64,000 bases of DNA from Candidatus Latescibacterota bacterium (GTDB lineage Bacteria > Latescibacterota > UBA2968 > UBA8231). Under the pieces are notes generated by a model, which did not search any database, was not told the DNA's origin, and worked only from the letters and a program-made list of their open reading frames with translations. Position numbers and translations under genes: made by a program. The stretch lies in contig JAJEGS010000028.1 in NCBI GenBank assembly GCA_022819745.1, positions 28,570 through 92,569 of the forward strand, given 5' to 3'. Each line of letters begins with the position of its first letter. Positions within the stretch are counted from its first letter, which is position 1. Below, piece by piece: positions 52,102 through 63,985 of the stretch.

Positions 52102-53073
52102 ATGCCATGCTTGACGGACGAACAACTCGCACACTTTGACGAAGAAGGCTACCTACTAGTGAGAGGGATGCTTGACGTGGAAGAGGTCATCCAGCCCATT
52201 ATCGACGAATACCACGGCGTCCTCGACAGGCTCGCTCGCGAACTCTACCAAGATGGCCAGATCGCATCCACGTATGACGACCTGTCTTTTGGCCAGCGCT
52301 TGACGCAAATCGTCGTCGAGAGCGGCCAGATCCACGCCCAGTACTTCGACTTCTCCCTGCCCCAGACAGGCATTGATGCCGATACCCCCTTCTGGGCTGG
52401 CCCAGCCGTTTTTCGCTGTATTACCAACCCCGACCTCCTCGACGTGGTCGAGTCCATTGTCGGCCCGGAGATTTGGTCCAACCCCGTCCAGCACGTGCGC
52501 CTCAAGCCGCCCGAGCGCCTAGTGCCCAAAAACCACAACGGCCAAGCGCTAGTCAGCGCCACCAACTGGCACCAAGACAACGGCGTGGTCCTGCCCGAAG
52601 CCGACGACTCGGAAGTCCTGACAGTGTGGTTCCCGCTCAATGAGGCGACGCTCGAAAACGGCTGTCTGCGGATTATGCCCCGCAGCCATCGGCGAGGGCT
52701 ACAAACTCACTGTCCGGGAGGGCCGGGAGGATTGTGGATACCCGAGTTGTTTATGGATATGGATGCGGCGATGCCGGTGCCCATGCAGCCCGGCGATGTG
52801 CTTTTCCTCACTCAACACACCATCCACGGCTCGCTGGCCAACAACAGCGACGATGTGCGCTGGAGCTTTGACTTGCGCTACAATCCAATCGGCCAGCCCA
52901 CGGGCCGCGACCTCTTCCCCGGCTTTGTCGCCCGCAGCAGATCCAACCCAGAAAGCGTCTTACGCGATCCAGTGGCTTGGGAAAAGCTCTGGCGCGACAC
53001 CCGCGACCGGTTGGCGCAAGAGGCGCACACCCCCTTCAATCGCTGGAACGCCGACGCGGCTGTTTGTGCCTAA
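52102..53073 (+). CDS. Phytanoyl-CoA dioxygenase-like (PhyH) protein
   Basis: A 323-residue Fe(II)/2-oxoglutarate oxygenase with an intact site: H157-Q-D159 (NWHQDNG), H242 (TIHGSLANN) and R259 (SFDLRYN). GGAGGAAAGC precedes the ATG. The C-terminal block NPIGQPTGRDLFPGFVARSR closely parallels the PhyH gene at 34438-35322, so these two are paralogues. Substrate unknown. Confidence 0.9.
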   Translation: MPCLTDEQLAHFDEEGYLLVRGMLDVEEVIQPIIDEYHGVLDRLARELYQDGQIASTYDDLSFGQRLTQIVVESGQIHAQYFDFSLPQTGIDADTPFWAGPAVFRCITNPDLLDVVESIVGPEIWSNPVQHVRLKPPERLVPKNHNGQALVSATNWHQDNGVVLPEADDSEVLTVWFPLNEATLENGCLRIMPRSHRRGLQTHCPGGPGGLWIPELFMDMDAAMPVPMQPGDVLFLTQHTIHGSLANNSDDVRWSFDLRYNPIGQPTGRDLFPGFVARSRSNPESVLRDPVAWEKLWRDTRDRLAQEAHTPFNRWNADAAVCA

Positions 53074-54884: not shown

Positions 54885-55814
54885 TCACGACCACCTAGAT
54901 TTCAGGTCTGCCTCAATTTCCTGCCAGGGGACTTGCAGTTTTGCGGCTGCGGCCATCAACGCGTACACGACGCCGTTAAATTCTTCTGGAATCCCCGTTT
55001 CTTGCGTAAACGCTCTCACAAACTCAGCCGATTCCTCGCCGACTTTCTTGCAAATTGCATTGCTGTCTGCAAGGAGCTTTGACGTCTTGGAGCCGGTGGG
55101 CTTTTGCGCGACTGCGGATATTCTCCGGTACTCCTCTTCCCATGGATTGACGATTTCCCGTCCGATCAATGAGATGTCGCTGAATCGGACGACCTCGGCA
55201 ACCTTGAGTCCGGTCTTGGACATCGCGCTTGCGGGCGAGCGTTCCCCGCGATACACCACCTCAATGCACCAGTCGTGCGTGCCCTCTGCTACCGTGTTTT
55301 CCGTGTCGCCAGCATAAGCAGCGATACTGATCCGCAGTTTGCTGGCTTGGAAGCGCTGCGACAGATACTGGCGAGAGGACAGTTCGTATTTCTTGTTCAC
55401 GGCAATGGACACCACTGCGGACGAATCTGGAATCCGCCCTTCGCGATTCAACAGACAAAGGGCTGGCCGATAGAACTGAGCATTTGGATCGAACCAATCG
55501 TAGGTGTTGAGGACTCCAAGTGGAGAGTCCCCAGCGCCCAGCATGTACTCGTCGAACAGATCGTCTCCAGTGAGGCCATACGCGACTTCTCCACGTAGGA
55601 GACAATCGTCAACCCGTTGGGGCACGTCTTCCCCGCGCGCCGAAATTATTTCGAGGGTTCCCAGGCTCTCGTCAGTTCGGGTGAACTCGCCTCCGTCGCT
55701 AACACCGATGTCACTCAGGAGGTTGTTCACATACTCATGCAGCCCACTGTTCTTGGGAATGTAGAGTTTGGCCTTTGGTTCAGGGACGAATAAACCGATT
55801 GCTTCGCGAAACAT
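54885..55814 (-). CDS. HisG-HisE-like fusion (ATP phosphoribosyltransferase plus phosphoribosyl-ATP pyrophosphatase-like)
   Basis: A 309-residue protein. Residues about 15-210 resemble HisG: LYIPKNSGLHEYVNNLL (PRPP/ATP-binding opening), EIISARGEDVPQRVDD and AYGLTGDDLFDEY (the GITGxD-type signature). Residues about 240-309 resemble HisE/MazG-type pyrophosphatase: TSKLLADSNAICKKVGEESA with its K-x2-EE-x2-E metal motif, and a trailing LLMAAAAKLQVPW-like helix (here YALMAAAAKLQVPWQEIEAD). HisG and HisE catalyse steps 1 and 2 of histidine synthesis but are usually separate, and HisE is normally fused to HisI. No other his gene is near, so a non-histidine role is possible. Confidence 0.75.
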   Translation of the reverse strand: MFREAIGLFVPEPKAKLYIPKNSGLHEYVNNLLSDIGVSDGGEFTRTDESLGTLEIISARGEDVPQRVDDCLLRGEVAYGLTGDDLFDEYMLGAGDSPLGVLNTYDWFDPNAQFYRPALCLLNREGRIPDSSAVVSIAVNKKYELSSRQYLSQRFQASKLRISIAAYAGDTENTVAEGTHDWCIEVVYRGERSPASAMSKTGLKVAEVVRFSDISLIGREIVNPWEEEYRRISAVAQKPTGSKTSKLLADSNAICKKVGEESAEFVRAFTQETGIPEEFNGVVYALMAAAAKLQVPWQEIEADLKSRWS

Positions 55815-58216: not shown

Positions 58217-59173
58217 TCAACTGTCATCGCGATAGGGACCTGTATCAATGCCGGGTAGGGTATGCTCCAAAAGGTCCAAAGTTTGGCTGGTGAAGTACGG
58301 GTGTCTAGGCTCGGGCCAGCCGAACAGGCCGCGCACTCGGGGCGTGGTGGCGGTAAAGAAAGGCAGCATGTACTCGCGTTCGCCGTAGATAAAGGGATTG
58401 GCGAATCGGGTCCAGCGATCGTTGTCGCGGCGGCACATAGACAAGGTCCAAAAGGCGCGCTGCGTGCGCTTATTGGCAAAGGGTTGCGCCGCGTGGATTA
58501 GGTACGACGAGTAGAAAAGGGCCGACCCCTGCCGACCAGTGGCAGGGAGCGGAGCGGCTAGTTCGGTGGCTTGGCGCAGGTCTTTGAAGGATCCACCCGC
58601 CGCGTTGTCGTTAGCCAGCGCCCGCACAAAAGCGGGACCAGCTACTTTGTGCGAACCGGGGATGACCAGCATGGGGGCACCGTCGTCTTCGACATCGTGC
58701 AGGTACACCCCGGAATTGACGTAGTCGAAACGGCCTGTTTGGTCGTGGGGCGGCAGCAGGCAATTGGTGTAGTGGTCGATGTGGTAGCCCTCCCAAGAGT
58801 TGTCGGGATGGCGCTTGTCGGTAGGCCCTGATCGCATGAAGAGGTGGGCATTGCAGTAGCTAGCTTTTGAGTCTAGGCACTGCTCAAAGACATCGAGGTA
58901 GGTCTCGTTTTCTATTAGCCCGTCCAAGGCGGGCGCACCCACGGGAAATTGCGAGCGGCCTTCGGAGTGGTCGTGCGTGGTGGTGAAGCCGTCCGAGATC
59001 CCGGAGGCGTCGCCTTGATCGCAAGCGGCCAACCATTGCTCGAAGGATTGGCCGTAGAAAATCTGTTCCATCGCCGCTAGGGCATCATCCATCTCGTCGG
59101 CAGTGAACAGGTCGGGGACGATGATATAGCCGTCGCGGTGGAATTGGTCGAGTTGGGCTGGCGTTAGGCTCAT
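58217..59173 (-). CDS. Phytanoyl-CoA dioxygenase-like (PhyH) protein
   Basis: A 318-residue Fe(II)/2-oxoglutarate oxygenase. H131-I-D133 (YHIDHYTN) and H227 (LIHAAQPF) form the metal site, PMLVIPGSHK (167-176) is the superfamily core strand, and the arginine in KRTQRAFWTLS binds 2-oxoglutarate. It differs markedly from the other PhyH proteins here and belongs to another subfamily. It is divergent from the sigma factor operon. Confidence 0.88.
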   Translation of the reverse strand: MSLTPAQLDQFHRDGYIIVPDLFTADEMDDALAAMEQIFYGQSFEQWLAACDQGDASGISDGFTTTHDHSEGRSQFPVGAPALDGLIENETYLDVFEQCLDSKASYCNAHLFMRSGPTDKRHPDNSWEGYHIDHYTNCLLPPHDQTGRFDYVNSGVYLHDVEDDGAPMLVIPGSHKVAGPAFVRALANDNAAGGSFKDLRQATELAAPLPATGRQGSALFYSSYLIHAAQPFANKRTQRAFWTLSMCRRDNDRWTRFANPFIYGEREYMLPFFTATTPRVRGLFGWPEPRHPYFTSQTLDLLEHTLPGIDTGPYRDDS

Positions 59174-59257
59174 GGGGTCTCGATCTAGTATAGGTTGAGG
59201 TTGGTTTTCAGGCGGTGGGTGGTAAGATACCGCACTCGACTAGCGAGTCAACTCAAG

Positions 59258-59299: not shown

Positions 59300-59351
59300 C
59301 GTCTTTGAACCTGTGCTTTCCGGGCGGCGTCTTTACTTGCAGAGAGCCTTG

Positions 59352-59951
59352 ATGCAGATACCGGACCCACAACTCATAGCGCAAATAAAAGAACGCGACG
59401 AACGCGCATTCCAGCAGTTCTTTGAGCGCTATCGGGAGCAGATCCACGATCACGTGCGCCGCATCGTCCGCGACGATGCGAGCGCTAACGATGTAGTGCA
59501 GGAGGTTTTCTTGCGGGTCTGGAACCGGGCCGGCCAATGGAGTGGTCGAGGCTCTGCGGCTAGCTGGCTGTTCCGCATCGCCACTCATCTTTCCCTGACT
59601 CATCTGCGCACCGTGCGAAGGCGGCGGGAACAGCGGCTGGAAATGCTGTCTGAAACCGTGGAGCAGGAGACGCAGCAAGTGCCCGAATGGATGATTGAGG
59701 CGGCGTCCGAACGCCCCGACGCCCAAGTGGAAAGGGCCGACCAGCAGCGCTGGCTGCGGCGACAAGTACAAGCGCTGTCCGAGGACAAGCGCGAGGTTTT
59801 CCGTCTGATCTACGACGCCCAAGTAGAAGTGCGGGACGCGGCCGAACGCTTGGGCATTCCCGAAGGCACCGTAAAGTCGCGCCTGCACCACGGTCGCCGC
59901 CAGCTCTCACGGGCCTGGCAGGCCATCCATAACCCGGAGGAACACGAATGA
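59352..59951 (+). CDS. ECF-type RNA polymerase sigma factor
   Basis: A 199-residue group 4 (ECF) sigma factor from the ATG at 59352 (MQIPDPQLIAQIKERDERAF). The open frame reaches 59313. Region 2 is complete (FFERYREQIHDHVRRI, VVQEVFLRVWNRAG, GSAASWLFRIATHLSL). Region 4 has the helix-turn-helix VRDAAERLGIPEGTVKSRLH. No anti-sigma gene adjoins it. Instead its stop overlaps (ATGA) the start of the single-chain RNA polymerase-like gene, so the two are made together. The natural inference is that this sigma factor serves that polymerase, or recruits it to promoters. Confidence 0.92.
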   Translation: MQIPDPQLIAQIKERDERAFQQFFERYREQIHDHVRRIVRDDASANDVVQEVFLRVWNRAGQWSGRGSAASWLFRIATHLSLTHLRTVRRRREQRLEMLSETVEQETQQVPEWMIEAASERPDAQVERADQQRWLRRQVQALSEDKREVFRLIYDAQVEVRDAAERLGIPEGTVKSRLHHGRRQLSRAWQAIHNPEEHE

Positions 59952-62900
59952 CATTGAATCTCGACATACCTTGGCATAGGGAGTCCTTTGACCTTTTCGT
60001 CCACCAGCGACTGCCCCAGCTTTTGGGCGAGCGCTTGCCGCTGGCTGACTATCAAGTCGAACAACAGGACTCTTATACTTTTTCTATTAAACTGAGCTTG
60101 GGACTCGGCGATGCCTCGGTCGAGGTTGAGTACCGGGATTTGCCTCGGCCCGACCGCGACGGGCTTTTCCACATTGAAGGCAACTATCGGGTCGTGGTCC
60201 CCTATCCCGATCGGCGCGACCTCGCTGAAGCGCGCATTCTGTGTGTGGGCGAGCAGTTCTACGACTTTATTGACCAAAGATTGGAGGCGGCTCCCGAGCA
60301 ATTGGCTTGGGACGACGACCTAGTGCGGAACTGGCTGCCGTTGGACGCTTGGATGCGCGACTTCCACTTGGAGGAAACTTCGCAGTATCTACAGGCGACC
60401 AACTGGCTCGACCGTTACACCCATCTGCGGCGGCTGACTTTGATCCCCATCGTCGTCGAGCCGTTTGACGACCAAGACGTTTTTCCCGACAGCCAATACG
60501 GCCTAGTGTGCCCCTATTGCACCCCCGAAGGCCCCAATATCGGCCGAGTGCTGGAAGTGGCCCGCGGTGCCCGCATCCGCGATGGCAAGCTCGAACGGAT
60601 CGACGAAGCGCCCGACAGCATCTTGGGTTTTTCGGCCTCCATGGTGCCCTTTCTCGAACACGACGATACCAATCGCGCCCTGATGGGCATCAATATGATG
60701 CGCCAGTGGACGAGCGCCGCCGACACAGCAGCACCGATTCACGACACGGGTTGGTTCCGCCAGCAGTACGACCAGCGCTTGGCCTCTAAGGGCAACAAAC
60801 CCGAGCCGGCCCTAGTGCAGACGGGATACGAGCCCGAGGCCGCCGATTTTTGGGGCGGGTACAGTCTGCTGACTGCCTTCGTCATGTGGGATGGGGACAC
60901 GTTTGAGGATGGCTTAGTCATTAGCGAGTCGGCCGCGGCACGGATGGACTTTCCCGCCGCAGTGGGGGTGGGCGACAAACTAAGCAACCGCCACGGTGCC
61001 AAAGGGGTGGTGACGCGCATCCTGCCCGACGCCGACATGCCGCAGTTGCCCGACGGTACGCCGATAGAGCTCATCTTGAGTCCGACCAGTATGGTCTCGC
61101 GGCTCAACTTCGGCCAGCAGCGCGAGGCGGTCATGGGTCGCCTCGCTCAAGCCGAAGGGACTCCGGCGGTGGTGCCGCCTTTCCAAGCACCCAGCGAAGA
61201 GACGTTAAAAGCGCGTCTGGCGGCGGCGGGGCTGCCCGAAGACGGCATGGAGCAACTGACCCTCAAAGGCGCAAAGCTGCCCTATCGCAGTACCGTGGGT
61301 TGGGTGTACTGGGGCCTTCTGGCGGCCCACACTGCGGCCGAGTACTTGGAAACCGCGGTGACAGGAGTCGGCGGACCAGCGCTCGACATGATGGCCTACG
61401 GAGCTTTGTGCGAGGCTGGGGCCGTAGCCAATATCCACGCTTTGTTCAACACGGCCGCGGCTGAGCGGCCCGACGCCAATGCGCTAGGCCAGCGTTTGGC
61501 TTCTGACCCAATATCCCCGTCTTCGCCTCCGTCTCCACGCTTTGCTCTATTGCAGCAGTTGTTGGGTATGGCCGGGATACGGGCCGAGTTAGCGGGCGAG
61601 GAGTTGCGCTTTTCCTTTGCCGAGCCCGAGGGACTGACCTTGGCCCGGCCAGTGCCGCACCCGTGGGCACCGGGACGCCAAGTGGGGACGGTGGGAGATC
61701 CCGGCGCTTTGCCTGCGGGGATCGAGTTCGACCCGATTCGAGGCTGCTACGAGGATTTGGTCGAAGCCAATACGCGCTTGCAACGCATCATCGATAGCGA
61801 GGCTCCTGAGGCTCTGGTCGGGCCAGCAGTGGCGCAGGTGACTCAACGGGTGGAGGATTTTTTTACCGCGCTGTTGCGTCCGGAGCACCTCCACTTCCGG
61901 GCTAGACCGCTGTTTAGCGGCCGGGCCGCGCTCGCCTCGGAGTCTGAGTTGGATCTCGACCAAGTGGGCCTGCCCGAGGAGATGGCTTGGGCTTTGTTCG
62001 GGCCTCAGGTAGAGCGGGAGATAGGTCGCGCCGAGGAAGTGGCGCGGCGTTCGCCCCGAGCGACTGAGGTTCTGGACGCGCTCATGGAACGCTCGTGGGT
62101 GCTGCTGTACAGCGCCCAGCGGGTGCTGGTTGACGATGGCCCGGCGTCCACCGCAGTGGTGGCCTTTCGTCCGCAGCGTTTGGCCGGGGCCGCCGTGCGC
62201 GTCCATCCGCGCGTTTGCCGACTGATGGAGCTAGATTTCGACGGCGATCAGATCGAGGTGTTTTTGCCCCTCACTGAGGAAGCCCAGGCCGAAGCCGAGA
62301 CTGCGCTGTCGGTGGCCGGGCACATACAGCGCGATGCAGATATATGGCGCTACGTGACCGACAACTACCACGGCACGATATGGGGCTTGGCGCAGCTTTG
62401 CCGCACGGAGGAAGGCCGCGCTGAAGTGGAGGAATTGACCGGAGTGGCCGTGGATGGCAGTCGGCTATTTTCCAAGCACGATCTCAACCGCTTATTAGCT
62501 CAGGTGCTGCAGCACGAGGGCCTAGAGCGAGCGTTAGAGGTTCTCGACCAGTTGACGCGGCGCGGCTTTGAGGTCTGCAAGCTGTCGGGGGCCTCCTTCA
62601 ATCCCTTCCTCGGTTCGAGCAAGGAGTGGCCTGAGCAACCCAAAGAGGCCGATTGGGACGAGTGGCAAATGTATGGCGACGAGTTGGTGGCGGCTTTCTA
62701 CCAGCAGGCCGATTTCGACGACAACGACTTGGGGCCCTTGGCCTTGTTGTCGCTGTCGGGGGCGCGGGGCAACCAACAGCAGATGATTCAATACGTGGGC
62801 GGTGGGTTAATCTATCGGGAAGATGGCGGCCTATTCGCCCAGCGCGGTTGTTGGCGCGACGGCCTGTCGGTAGAGGAAACCAAGGTGCGGGCCCCGCGTG

Positions 62901-63112
62901 CCTTATGGTGGGGTCTGGCCGCCGCCAACCAGCGCTGGATTGAGGCGCAGGAAGCGGCCCAACAGCCCGTCCGTGCCGATTACCACGTTTTGGGACGAGC
63001 CGCCAAGGCCGCGCAACCGGGCGTGGTATTGGCGAGGGCAGCCGAGCGCGGCGAGGTCGAGCCGCTGACCAGTCTATTCAGCAGGCTCTTTGTGGGACTG
63101 ACGGCGGACTGA
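59948..63112 (+). CDS. Compact single-chain RNA polymerase beta-beta' fusion protein
   Basis: 1,054 residues, against some 2,700 for beta plus beta'. Beta-type motifs come in canonical order: CPYCTPEGPNIG (188-199), PFLEHDDTNRALMG (234-247), FVMWDGDTFEDGLVIS (311-326), and GDKLSNRHGAKG (342-353) with both catalytic-centre lysines (K344, K352). Beta'-type motifs follow: FSGRAAL (656-662), RVHPRVC (751-757), the metal-binding DFDGD (763-767), SGARGNQQQMIQ (937-948) and the bridge-helix start RDGLSVEE (970-977). No trigger-loop motif (QLTMRTFH type) is seen; the chain ends about 75 residues after the bridge helix. Residues matching Escherichia coli beta' R425 and N458 are D730 and E761. Known relatives of reduced polymerases include phage YonO. 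No alpha or omega partner is encoded nearby. Confidence 0.9.
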   Translation: MTLNLDIPWHRESFDLFVHQRLPQLLGERLPLADYQVEQQDSYTFSIKLSLGLGDASVEVEYRDLPRPDRDGLFHIEGNYRVVVPYPDRRDLAEARILCVGEQFYDFIDQRLEAAPEQLAWDDDLVRNWLPLDAWMRDFHLEETSQYLQATNWLDRYTHLRRLTLIPIVVEPFDDQDVFPDSQYGLVCPYCTPEGPNIGRVLEVARGARIRDGKLERIDEAPDSILGFSASMVPFLEHDDTNRALMGINMMRQWTSAADTAAPIHDTGWFRQQYDQRLASKGNKPEPALVQTGYEPEAADFWGGYSLLTAFVMWDGDTFEDGLVISESAAARMDFPAAVGVGDKLSNRHGAKGVVTRILPDADMPQLPDGTPIELILSPTSMVSRLNFGQQREAVMGRLAQAEGTPAVVPPFQAPSEETLKARLAAAGLPEDGMEQLTLKGAKLPYRSTVGWVYWGLLAAHTAAEYLETAVTGVGGPALDMMAYGALCEAGAVANIHALFNTAAAERPDANALGQRLASDPISPSSPPSPRFALLQQLLGMAGIRAELAGEELRFSFAEPEGLTLARPVPHPWAPGRQVGTVGDPGALPAGIEFDPIRGCYEDLVEANTRLQRIIDSEAPEALVGPAVAQVTQRVEDFFTALLRPEHLHFRARPLFSGRAALASESELDLDQVGLPEEMAWALFGPQVEREIGRAEEVARRSPRATEVLDALMERSWVLLYSAQRVLVDDGPASTAVVAFRPQRLAGAAVRVHPRVCRLMELDFDGDQIEVFLPLTEEAQAEAETALSVAGHIQRDADIWRYVTDNYHGTIWGLAQLCRTEEGRAEVEELTGVAVDGSRLFSKHDLNRLLAQVLQHEGLERALEVLDQLTRRGFEVCKLSGASFNPFLGSSKEWPEQPKEADWDEWQMYGDELVAAFYQQADFDDNDLGPLALLSLSGARGNQQQMIQYVGGGLIYREDGGLFAQRGCWRDGLSVEETKVRAPRALWWGLAAANQRWIEAQEAAQQPVRADYHVLGRAAKAAQPGVVLARAAERGEVEPLTSLFSRLFVGLTAD

Positions 63113-63115
63113 GTT

Positions 63116-63985
63116 TTACTGAACCACCGCTTCGTCGCCCAAATGCTCGCGAATCCACGCTTTCAGCGGCACATCTTCTTCTTTTGGCGAAGTGTAGCCG
63201 TGCCCGCCGCTTGGGCCAGCACCTAATAGCTGCTGGCGGATGGGGTCGCAGCGGTCCATCAGGTGCTCCACCGTCATGTCGTCGCGCGGTCGCAACCAGC
63301 GGTAGCTATAGCCGTAAAACAGCGCCCTGCGCGCGTTGGGTGAGGAGTTGTGGCCGGCCGCGTGCCAGATGCGCCGGTCGAAAAACACCGCGTCGCCCGC
63401 TGCCACTTGGATTGGTGTTGCGCCTGCTGGGTCTAAGTCCTCGTCTTCGGGCATTTCCAGCTTGTTTTTTAGGTGCGAGCCGGGCACCGCGTGGAAGTTG
63501 CCGCGATTGGTCTCAGTGCAGTCCGTGAGAAAGTACGCCACCTTGAGCGAGACCCTCGGCCGGGGCTCAGTCTCCATGTCGATGTTGAGCCGCCCGCTGT
63601 CTTGATGCCAGCCCAGCCGCTTGCGCGCGGGCACGACGCCGTCTAAAGGCGGAGTGACGATCAAGTGCGTGTGGTAGAGCTGAATGTGCCAGCCCAAAAT
63701 CCCAAATACCTTGGCGAACGTCTTGGGCCAGTCGAGCAACTCCAGAAAGAGCTCGTCTTTGCCGATAAAGTCGAAAAAGTTGTGCATTTGGTGCTTTTTC
63801 AGCCCCTTTTGCAGCCGGGCGTCGGCGTCGAGGCGATCGACGATGGGGATGAGCTGTGCTAGAGCTGGTTTCAAAACTCCGATAGGGATTCGGGTTGAAT
63901 TTTTGCGCGGCTGCGGGCTATTTTTCGACCATCGAAAGGAGTATATCCGATGGTTGCGTATACCGGTGAAGTCACCGAAGCCCAA
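63116..63985 (-). CDS. Phytanoyl-CoA dioxygenase-like (PhyH) protein, 5' end apparently replaced
   Basis: The C-terminal part is a normal PhyH protein: GWHQDSGRLN gives the His-x-Asp pair, IWHAAGHN the distal histidine, FHAVPGSH the core strand, and RRALFYGYSYRW the arginine. The recognisable family start (GVLKPALAQLIPIVDRLDA) begins only about residue 36, and the usual preceding DGYVVI-type strand is missing. The first 35 codons read back through the left end of an IS5-type element, so the gene is probably truncated at its start by that insertion and may not be expressed. Confidence 0.7.
   Translation of the reverse strand: MGFGDFTGIRNHRIYSFRWSKNSPQPRKNSTRIPIGVLKPALAQLIPIVDRLDADARLQKGLKKHQMHNFFDFIGKDELFLELLDWPKTFAKVFGILGWHIQLYHTHLIVTPPLDGVVPARKRLGWHQDSGRLNIDMETEPRPRVSLKVAYFLTDCTETNRGNFHAVPGSHLKNKLEMPEDEDLDPAGATPIQVAAGDAVFFDRRIWHAAGHNSSPNARRALFYGYSYRWLRPRDDMTVEHLMDRCDPIRQQLLGAGPSGGHGYTSPKEEDVPLKAWIREHLGDEAVVQ

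What the first reader, a model, noticed from the sequence alone, without database searches (positions are those of the whole stretch)
59352..63112. ECF sigma factor co-translated with a compact single-chain beta-beta' RNA polymerase
The sequence shows a 1,054-residue chain carrying beta motifs and then beta' motifs in canonical order, with the DFDGD metal site and both conserved beta lysines. An ATGA overlap joins it to an ECF sigma gene. In normal bacteria beta and beta' are separate and about 2.6 times larger in total, and they depend on alpha and omega. Single-chain reduced polymerases are known in some phages (YonO); I know of none paired with its own sigma factor, though I cannot search. 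This could be a dedicated transcription system for a small regulon, a domesticated mobile element, or a primase-like enzyme.
Basis: partly seen in the sequence, partly recalled or inferred. Interest (0 to 1): 0.95.

Follow-up and report, generated by a model that had tools for sequence, protein, structure and literature searches.

The report
Miniature RNA polymerase with private sigma
Beside their normal RNA polymerase, some uncultured bacteria of several phyla carry a two-gene unit, a sigma factor plus a shrunken one-piece RNA polymerase, behind its own conserved start signal; the two proteins would likely form a second, private transcription machine that switches on its own genes.

Summary
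An ECF sigma gene (59352-59951) overlaps by ATGA a 1,054-residue chain (59948-63112) that maps piece by piece onto beta and then beta' of E. coli, with a confident predicted RNAP fold (pLDDT 93). It keeps both catalytic barrels, the clamp helices and the bridge helix, but lacks lobes, flap, Zn ribbon and trigger loop. Relatives also hold ordinary rpoB and rpoC. By record titles the pair occurs on chromosomes of at least five phyla: 59 of 63 distinct loci have the sigma gene upstream on the same strand; the other four are contig ends (3) or a truncated polymerase gene (1). New here: one ECF-type promoter, TGAAC-N15-GGYGTC, precedes the sigma gene (54 of 57 regions match at least 10 of 11 positions; shuffles 0.3 per set). 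Genome scans found it above chance only before the operon itself, though the strict pattern saw just 13 of 31 operons. Most likely this is a self-activating sigma plus private polymerase. Against this: the flap that normally holds sigma region 4 is gone, and catalytic Asp residues are lost in 12 of 160 family rows, mostly in the window's wider clade. No activity was tested. Ten searches of an open-access library listed no such pair.

The parts
59306..59331 (+). Promoter of the operon: -35 TGAAC (59306-59310), 15-nt spacer, -10 GGCGTC (59326-59331), 20 nt before the sigma ATG
   Evidence: Only match in the window at <=1 mismatch (such a match is not rare by chance, 2.6 expected, so position and conservation carry the case). 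Same element before 54 of 57 sigma genes at >=10 of 11 positions; shuffles 0.3 per set
59352..59951 (+). ECF sigma factor, 199 aa, with a conserved inter-domain linker (P-x-W-M-I/V-D/E ... P)
   Evidence: Sigma70_r2 2.1e-15, Sigma70_r4_2 3.1e-13; family alignment A3
59948..59951 (+). ATGA stop/start overlap of the two genes
59948..63112 (+). Compact single-chain beta-beta' RNA polymerase, 1,054 aa
59948..61600 (+). Beta half (residues 1-551)
60977..61003 (+). K344 to K352 (within GDKLSNRHGAK): the two active-site lysines
   Evidence: Aligned to E. coli beta K1065 and K1073
61601..63109 (+). Beta' half (residues 552-1054)
61721..61873 (+). Clamp-helix hairpin (residues 592-642), the usual docking site of sigma region 2
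   Evidence: Two helices in the model; aligned to E. coli beta' 263-310
62234..62248 (+). DFDGD, the catalytic metal site
62870..62959 (+). Bridge helix (residues 975-1004); the 50 residues that follow leave no room for a trigger loop
62987..63100 (+). C-terminal piece that corresponds to the C-terminus of beta'
   Evidence: Structural alignment runs to E. coli beta' 1358; family motif PGxVFARAAAxGExDPLTxxxSRLFVGL

Best explanation
The window holds an operon of an ECF sigma factor and a miniature single-chain RNA polymerase behind a conserved ECF-type promoter, and the two products likely form a private holoenzyme that would read that promoter and so switch on its own operon, beside the cell's normal RNA polymerase. 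Shown: the operon, the polymerase homology and active-site residues, conserved pairing, the promoter element, and no excess of further promoter copies in the scans. Predicted: the fold. Inferred: sigma region 2 docks on the retained clamp helices, the conserved sigma linker threads the small active-site cleft, and region 4 reads TGAAC without a flap to hold it. The first transcripts would have to come from the host polymerase. The output is inferred to be a self-sustaining on-state plus whatever is co-transcribed (in some loci of one genus an ABC exporter gene sits between the two genes). The physiological purpose is not known.
For: Pairing: 59 of 63 distinct loci (and for L061). Sigma and polymerase distances correlate (r 0.906 over 26 pairs; largest of 2,000 permutations 0.43). 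In 32 of the phylum's 64 held genomes the paired sigma stands apart: 275-315 bits in 18 genomes, next other ECF 123 bits; 17 of the 18 have the polymerase and in G040 the contig ends 151 nt after the sigma match. Active site: the three Asp are kept in 50 of 52 genome loci with a readable gene over 880 aa. Purifying selection in the genus: dN/dS 0.14-0.17 polymerase, 0.02-0.18 sigma. Interface changed on both sides: clamp-helix positions R275, E295, A302 are invariant in 10 ordinary RpoC but Ala (62/84), Ala (62/84), Arg (61/84) in the family, while N276, R278 and P288 stay. The sigma has W57 and W63 in 31 of 31; 20 unpaired ECFs have W in 1 and 0. The sigma linker, reported as the least conserved ECF part and as the piece that enters the active-site cleft (PMC6411747, passages), is conserved here. 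Promoter. No other copies above chance.
Against: The flap that normally holds sigma region 4 is deleted (in the profile alignment residue 328 matches E. coli beta 821 and residue 333 matches 1054), and so are the lobes next to which region 2 normally sits (PMC6411747, passages), yet the -35 box and a 15-nt spacer are kept. Catalytic Asp residues are lost in 12 of 160 rows; at least 7 changes on a tree, mostly in the 22-row clade of the window. L008 has YFDGD yet keeps sigma and promoter, so there the host polymerase must read the promoter. The window protein has Glu where E. coli has N458 (Asn in 44 of 84) and lacks a trigger loop. K344 is Arg in 34 of 160 rows. Co-inheritance alone also fits a sigma that serves the host enzyme. 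No activity, binding or start site was measured.
Confidence: 0.5

Rival explanations
1. The sigma works with the ordinary multisubunit polymerase and merely autoregulates the operon; the compact polymerase does another job (RNA synthesis without a promoter, primer synthesis, or copying another template).
For: The promoter has a normal ECF layout with both boxes and fixed spacing. The compact chain has no flap. The operon persists where a catalytic Asp is lost (L008, L018). Sigma autoregulation is common for ECFs (recalled).
Against: Paired-specific sigma residues and clamp-helix changes on both partners; an unusually conserved linker; near-obligate pairing, although a third gene can separate the two in one genus.
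Confidence: 0.28
2. The chain is a polymerase-shaped sigma partner: it holds or releases the sigma (an anti-sigma or sink) in the operon place where anti-sigma genes often sit (recalled), and catalysis is secondary or lost.
For: Operon position; repeated loss of catalytic Asp in the window's wider clade with genes still open (9 of 22 hand-picked rows, two of them the same protein); clamp helices retained.
Against: The three Asp are kept in 148 of 160 rows and in 50 of 52 genome loci; the bridge helix and the two barrels are kept.
Confidence: 0.12
3. A phage or plasmid RNA polymerase, recently domesticated, that transcribes a hidden element.
For: Single-chain two-barrel polymerases are typical of phages and plasmids (PMC10770324, PMC7281927, passages). 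Distribution is patchy: 22 of 64, 17 of 291 and 5 of 400 genomes of three phyla.
Against: No match covering 80% of the protein on phage or plasmid records and only five remote ones on viral contigs. Sequence is closer to bacterial than to archaeal or eukaryotic subunits. In the window's genus several flanking genes are shared.
Confidence: 0.07
4. Misassembled or decaying rpoB-rpoC.
For: None beyond homology.
Against: 110 of the 120 listed homologues are over 980 aa, purifying selection, ordinary rpoC over the family cut-off in 13 of 13 relatives tested, 9 of which carry the compact gene.
Confidence: 0.01

Closest known systems
Bacterial multisubunit RNAP beta and beta' (RpoB/RpoC)
   Same: Both barrels, active-site motifs, clamp helices, bridge helix and beta' C-terminus; 32% identity over the structurally aligned part of a bacterial beta
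   Different: One chain of 1,054 aa; no lobes, flap, Zn ribbon or trigger loop; curated rpoB/rpoC cut-offs not met
YonO of phage SPbeta and YonO-like proteins (PMC5467207)
   Same: Single-chain two-barrel polymerase without trigger-loop homology
   Different: No detectable sequence similarity beyond DxDxD (hhalign probability 0.2%, HMM score -3.2 bits); the passages read leave open which factor, if any, YonO needs at promoters
AR9 non-virion RNAP with sigma-like subunit gp226 (PMC9209446, PMC7598289)
   Same: Reduced bacterial-type RNAP with a dedicated promoter-specificity subunit
   Different: Phage, several polypeptides, has a trigger loop, gp226 lacks clear sequence similarity to sigma factors (passages); here a true ECF sigma on bacterial chromosomes
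Phage P23-45 single-chain vRNAP/nvRNAP and crAss-like phage gp66 (PMC10770324)
   Same: Both barrels in one chain
   Different: Phage enzymes, highly divergent; no sigma partner mentioned in the passages read
Autoregulated ECF sigma factor operons (recalled)
   Same: Sigma with regions 2 and 4, TGAAC/GTC-type promoter before its own gene
   Different: The second gene encodes an RNA polymerase instead of an anti-sigma; linker conserved; no excess of promoter copies elsewhere

Membership tests
RpoB/RpoC (multisubunit RNAP, equivalog level) | Reaches the curated NCBIfam cut-offs TIGR02013 / TIGR02386 | tested here: not met
   161.1 of 801.15 bits; 83.8 of 963.5 bits
RpoB/RpoC (multisubunit RNAP, equivalog level) | Separate beta and beta' with flap, lobes and trigger loop | tested here: not met
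   Profile and structural alignments
Two-barrel (double-psi beta-barrel) RNA polymerases | Two barrels with the DFDGD metal site and the beta lysines | tested here: met
   For the window protein: sequence and predicted fold
Two-barrel (double-psi beta-barrel) RNA polymerases | Template-dependent RNA synthesis | not testable with these tools
   needs purified protein
YonO-like | Sequence similarity to YonO | tested here: not met
   hhalign 0.2%, HMM -3.2 bits, against 99.9% for E. coli beta'
ECF sigma factors | Regions 2 and 4 only, above Pfam cut-offs | tested here: met
   TIGR02937 100.9 bits, cut-off 42.9
ECF sigma factors | Directs an RNA polymerase to its promoter | not testable with these tools
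   promoter found by comparison only
Phage or plasmid RNAP | Close relatives on phage or plasmid genomes | tested here: not met
   No record covers 80% of the query; all under 60% identity, listed rows up to 34%

The most novel reading that the evidence does not exclude
Bacteria of several phyla carry a second, self-reading transcription system: a one-chain RNA polymerase that has shed flap, lobes and trigger loop, with its own co-evolved sigma and a private promoter that exists only in front of their own operon. It would be a self-activating switch orthogonal to the host RNA polymerase and perhaps the smallest sigma-dependent RNA polymerase.
Probability: 0.38. Interest if true: 0.97.

Novelty: new variant of a known kind. 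Interest (0 to 1): 0.88.

Why it matters
Bacteria are taught to have one RNA polymerase core that sigma factors borrow. A chromosomal, sigma-paired, single-chain polymerase would break that rule. It would show which parts of the enzyme sigma-dependent initiation really needs (here no flap, no trigger loop) and would offer a compact orthogonal transcription tool. Because a candidate promoter is now known, the idea can be tested with two proteins and one DNA fragment.

Tried and rejected
Misassembly or relic: rejected. Mobile element: no phage or plasmid carriers. The five viral-contig hits are remote; of these only L047 was examined, a 2,007-aa chain with Rpb1 and Rpb2 domains. Conserved third gene: none across the family. 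Neighbours are shared mostly within genera; two upstream genes are shared by seven loci. A regulon: a strict pattern in 62 genomes (31 with the polymerase, 31 without) gave 18 hits, 13 of them the operon's own promoter and 5 others, against 5 for the reversed control pattern. That pattern missed the own promoter in the other 18 of the 31 genomes, so its reach is limited. With one mismatch, 26 polymerase-bearing genomes gave 143 hits (at least 17 of them own promoters) against 109 control, and 27 genomes without it 110 against 92. Regulon sites that fit less well cannot be excluded. Defence system: no PADLOC match to the polymerase; the sigma has one weak match (6.2e-4, residues 140-179) to a CARF3 model. 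An empty site in genus members without the operon: not found; G006 and G007 hold one neighbour in another context. A purine-rich stretch after the -10 box could be a ribosome-binding site or an initial transcribed sequence; undecided. A rooted tree of the family among all RNAPs was not attempted, because of long branches. A structure of the complex was not attempted; the tool folds single chains.
Full report
What is there. The window encodes an ECF sigma (59352-59951, 199 aa) and, in ATGA overlap, a 1,054-aa chain (59948-63112). The nearest held genome is G001 (26% of sampled words). Its copy of the polymerase is the one on a contig titled Candidatus Latescibacterota (L001, 96% identical). The window's own assembly is not held, so statements on other genes of the genome rest on relatives.

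Active site. One search aligned 166 sequences (120 database proteins, 46 from loci and the window, with overlaps between the sets). The first lysine is K in 121 and R in 34 of 160 rows that span it, and the second is K in 148 of 160. All three catalytic Asp are kept in 148 of 160 readable rows and lost in 12. On a tree of 79 rows, picked to hold every affected database protein, 68 keep them; loss needs at least 7 changes (FastTree, several open forks, L008 and P0061 are the same protein). Nine of the 11 affected rows are in the 22-row clade that holds the window and 2 in the other 57 rows. Among genome loci with a readable gene over 880 aa, 50 of 52 keep all three; L008 and L018 do not, yet both keep the sigma gene; the fragment L039 is also affected. 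The window protein keeps DFDGD and both lysines but has Glu at the position of E. coli N458, which is Asn in 44 of 84.

A second polymerase, not the main one. Ordinary rpoC is found over the family cut-off in 13 of 13 relatives tested, 9 of which carry the compact gene. Of 11 genomes reached through loci that carry the compact gene, 9 show both ordinary rpoB and rpoC, G103 only a piece of rpoB and G105 only rpoC.

Distribution. Loci come from records named Latescibacterota, Poribacteria, Gemmatimonadota, Hydrogenedentota, Armatimonadota, Chloroflexota, Myxococcales and a few others (names are the submitters' and some bins may be mislabelled). Within phyla it is patchy: 22 of 64 genomes of the window's phylum, 17 of 291 in that of G104 (titled Armatimonadetes), 5 of 400 drawn from that of G105 (titled Chloroflexi).

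Pairing. Of 63 distinct loci, 58 show the sigma gene upstream on the same strand: 44 with a gap of at most 50 nt or an overlap (some overlaps are long only because the polymerase frame is open further upstream), 9 with 51-300, 5 with more. L061 has it 1.9 kb upstream. L039, L042 and L043 start at or near contig ends, and L036 holds a polymerase gene truncated at its N-terminus without a sigma gene. Of the wide gaps, L014 and L017 hold an ABC exporter gene and L020 another gene; L150 has a stop inside its polymerase gene. In 32 genomes given to, 18 have the paired sigma (275-315 bits). 17 of these have the polymerase and in G040 the contig ends 151 nt after the sigma match. G010 has only the promoter and a match to the first 112 sigma residues (153 bits), with no polymerase on that contig. 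The next best other ECF scores 123 bits. Sigma and polymerase distances correlate at r 0.906 over 26 non-redundant pairs (2,000 permutations, largest 0.43); shared descent explains part of this.

Interface. A comparative paper (PMC8321222, passages) names beta' R275, E295 and A302 as the essential residues of the coiled coil that meets sigma 2.2, and the beta flap-tip helix as the partner of sigma 4. The ECF holoenzyme structure paper (PMC6411747, passages) places ECF region 2 between the beta lobe and the beta' coiled coil and region 4 on the flap tip; it adds a second anchor for region 4 on a C-terminal beta helix, so the flap is not the only known anchor, and says that the linker, the least conserved part, enters the active-site cleft. 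In 10 ordinary RpoC the three residues are invariant (9, the tenth). In the compact family they are Ala, Ala and Arg in 62, 62 and 61 of 84, whereas N276 (81), R278 (73) and P288 (84) are kept. The paired sigmas carry W57 and W63 in 31 of 31; 20 unpaired ECFs of the phylum carry W in 1 and 0. In region 4 the paired ones mostly carry V/I at 153 (unpaired R/K), A at 186 (unpaired R/Q/K) and W at 189 (unpaired L). Their linker core is 39% identical between members under 60% overall identity, against 17% in unpaired ECFs. The unpaired set is also more diverse overall (36% against 52% in region 2) and was aligned to the paired profile, so part of the difference is that. By E. coli sigma70 numbering W57 falls at M413, a clamp-contact position (recalled).

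Promoter. Upstream regions of the sigma genes share TGAAC-N15-GGTGTC. In one search, 31 of 43 regions kept as non-redundant share the exact dyad (shuffle maximum 5). In one search, 36 of 57 regions (56 loci and the window) match 11 of 11 positions, 18 match 10 and 3 match 9; shuffles give 4.5 per set at 9, 0.3 at 10 and none at 11, so the last three are no evidence. The spacer is 15 in 54 of 57. L021 and L063 were too short to score. The window copy is 59306-59331 with GGCGTC. Genome scans find no excess beyond the operon, but the strict pattern itself found only 13 of 31 own promoters. In the window's genus the 9 hits with at most one mismatch to the genus version are all operon promoters: 8 in the 7 polymerase-bearing genomes (two in G003) and one at the G010 remnant. 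Among the five extra strict hits, one stands before a truncated sigma-like frame (G110:C139) and one before an ABC-2-type permease frame (G111:C1, named by eye).

How it most likely works. The parts suggest a sigma that brings the small polymerase to one promoter, its own, giving positive feedback. Docking of region 2 on the clamp helices and of the linker in the cleft is inferred. Region 4 without a flap is the main open point. The host polymerase has to make the first transcripts, and in lineages with a broken metal site it must make all of them. I give this 0.5, and 0.28 to a sigma that serves only the host polymerase.

Known relatives. YonO is a single-chain two-barrel polymerase without trigger-loop homology (PMC5467207, abstract, introduction and passages); our profile does not recognise it, while E. 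coli beta' is recognised at 99.9%. Phage single-chain enzymes are described in PMC10770324 (section 12 and passages), and fused subunits in plasmids and phages in PMC7281927 (passages). AR9 nvRNAP with sigma-like gp226 (PMC9209446, PMC7598289, passages) is the closest functional parallel. Ten searches of the open-access library listed no paper on an ECF sigma paired with a single-chain polymerase; the lists were capped, and subscription journals and preprints are not covered.

Noticed in passing
L047:6666-12689; G110:C268:1298-5383; G058:C540: Other single-frame polymerases: a 2,007-aa chain on a viral contig with Rpb2_6, Rpb1_2 and Rpb1_5 domains, and 1,999-aa and 1,474-aa open frames in bacterial genomes that match both halves of the profile.
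   Followed up: partly
L014, L017, L020 (between sigma and polymerase): In one genus an ABC exporter gene (L014, L017), or in L020 a 396-aa protein without a Pfam match, sits between the two genes.
   Followed up: partly
L009:5404-6357 and six other loci: Two conserved genes upstream of the sigma gene in seven loci; one has a DksA/TraR zinc finger in L009.
   Followed up: partly
G439:C1:2623972-2627028; G749:C318; G010:C605: Decaying copies: internal stops in the polymerase gene, or only the promoter and the first 112 sigma residues left. Described only.
   Followed up: partly
window 59221-59231 and 59234-59248: Two short inverted repeats (GGTAAGATACC, ACTCGACTAGCGAGT) between the operon and the divergent PhyH gene, largely conserved in the genus.
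   Followed up: no
window 52102-53073, 58217-59173, 63116-63985: Three PhyH (phytanoyl-CoA dioxygenase) genes near the operon; the last is convergent and ends 3 nt after the polymerase stop.
   Followed up: partly
window 54885-55814: A frame with a phosphoribosyl-ATP pyrophosphohydrolase domain and a HisG match below cut-off, possibly a HisG-HisE fusion.
   Followed up: no
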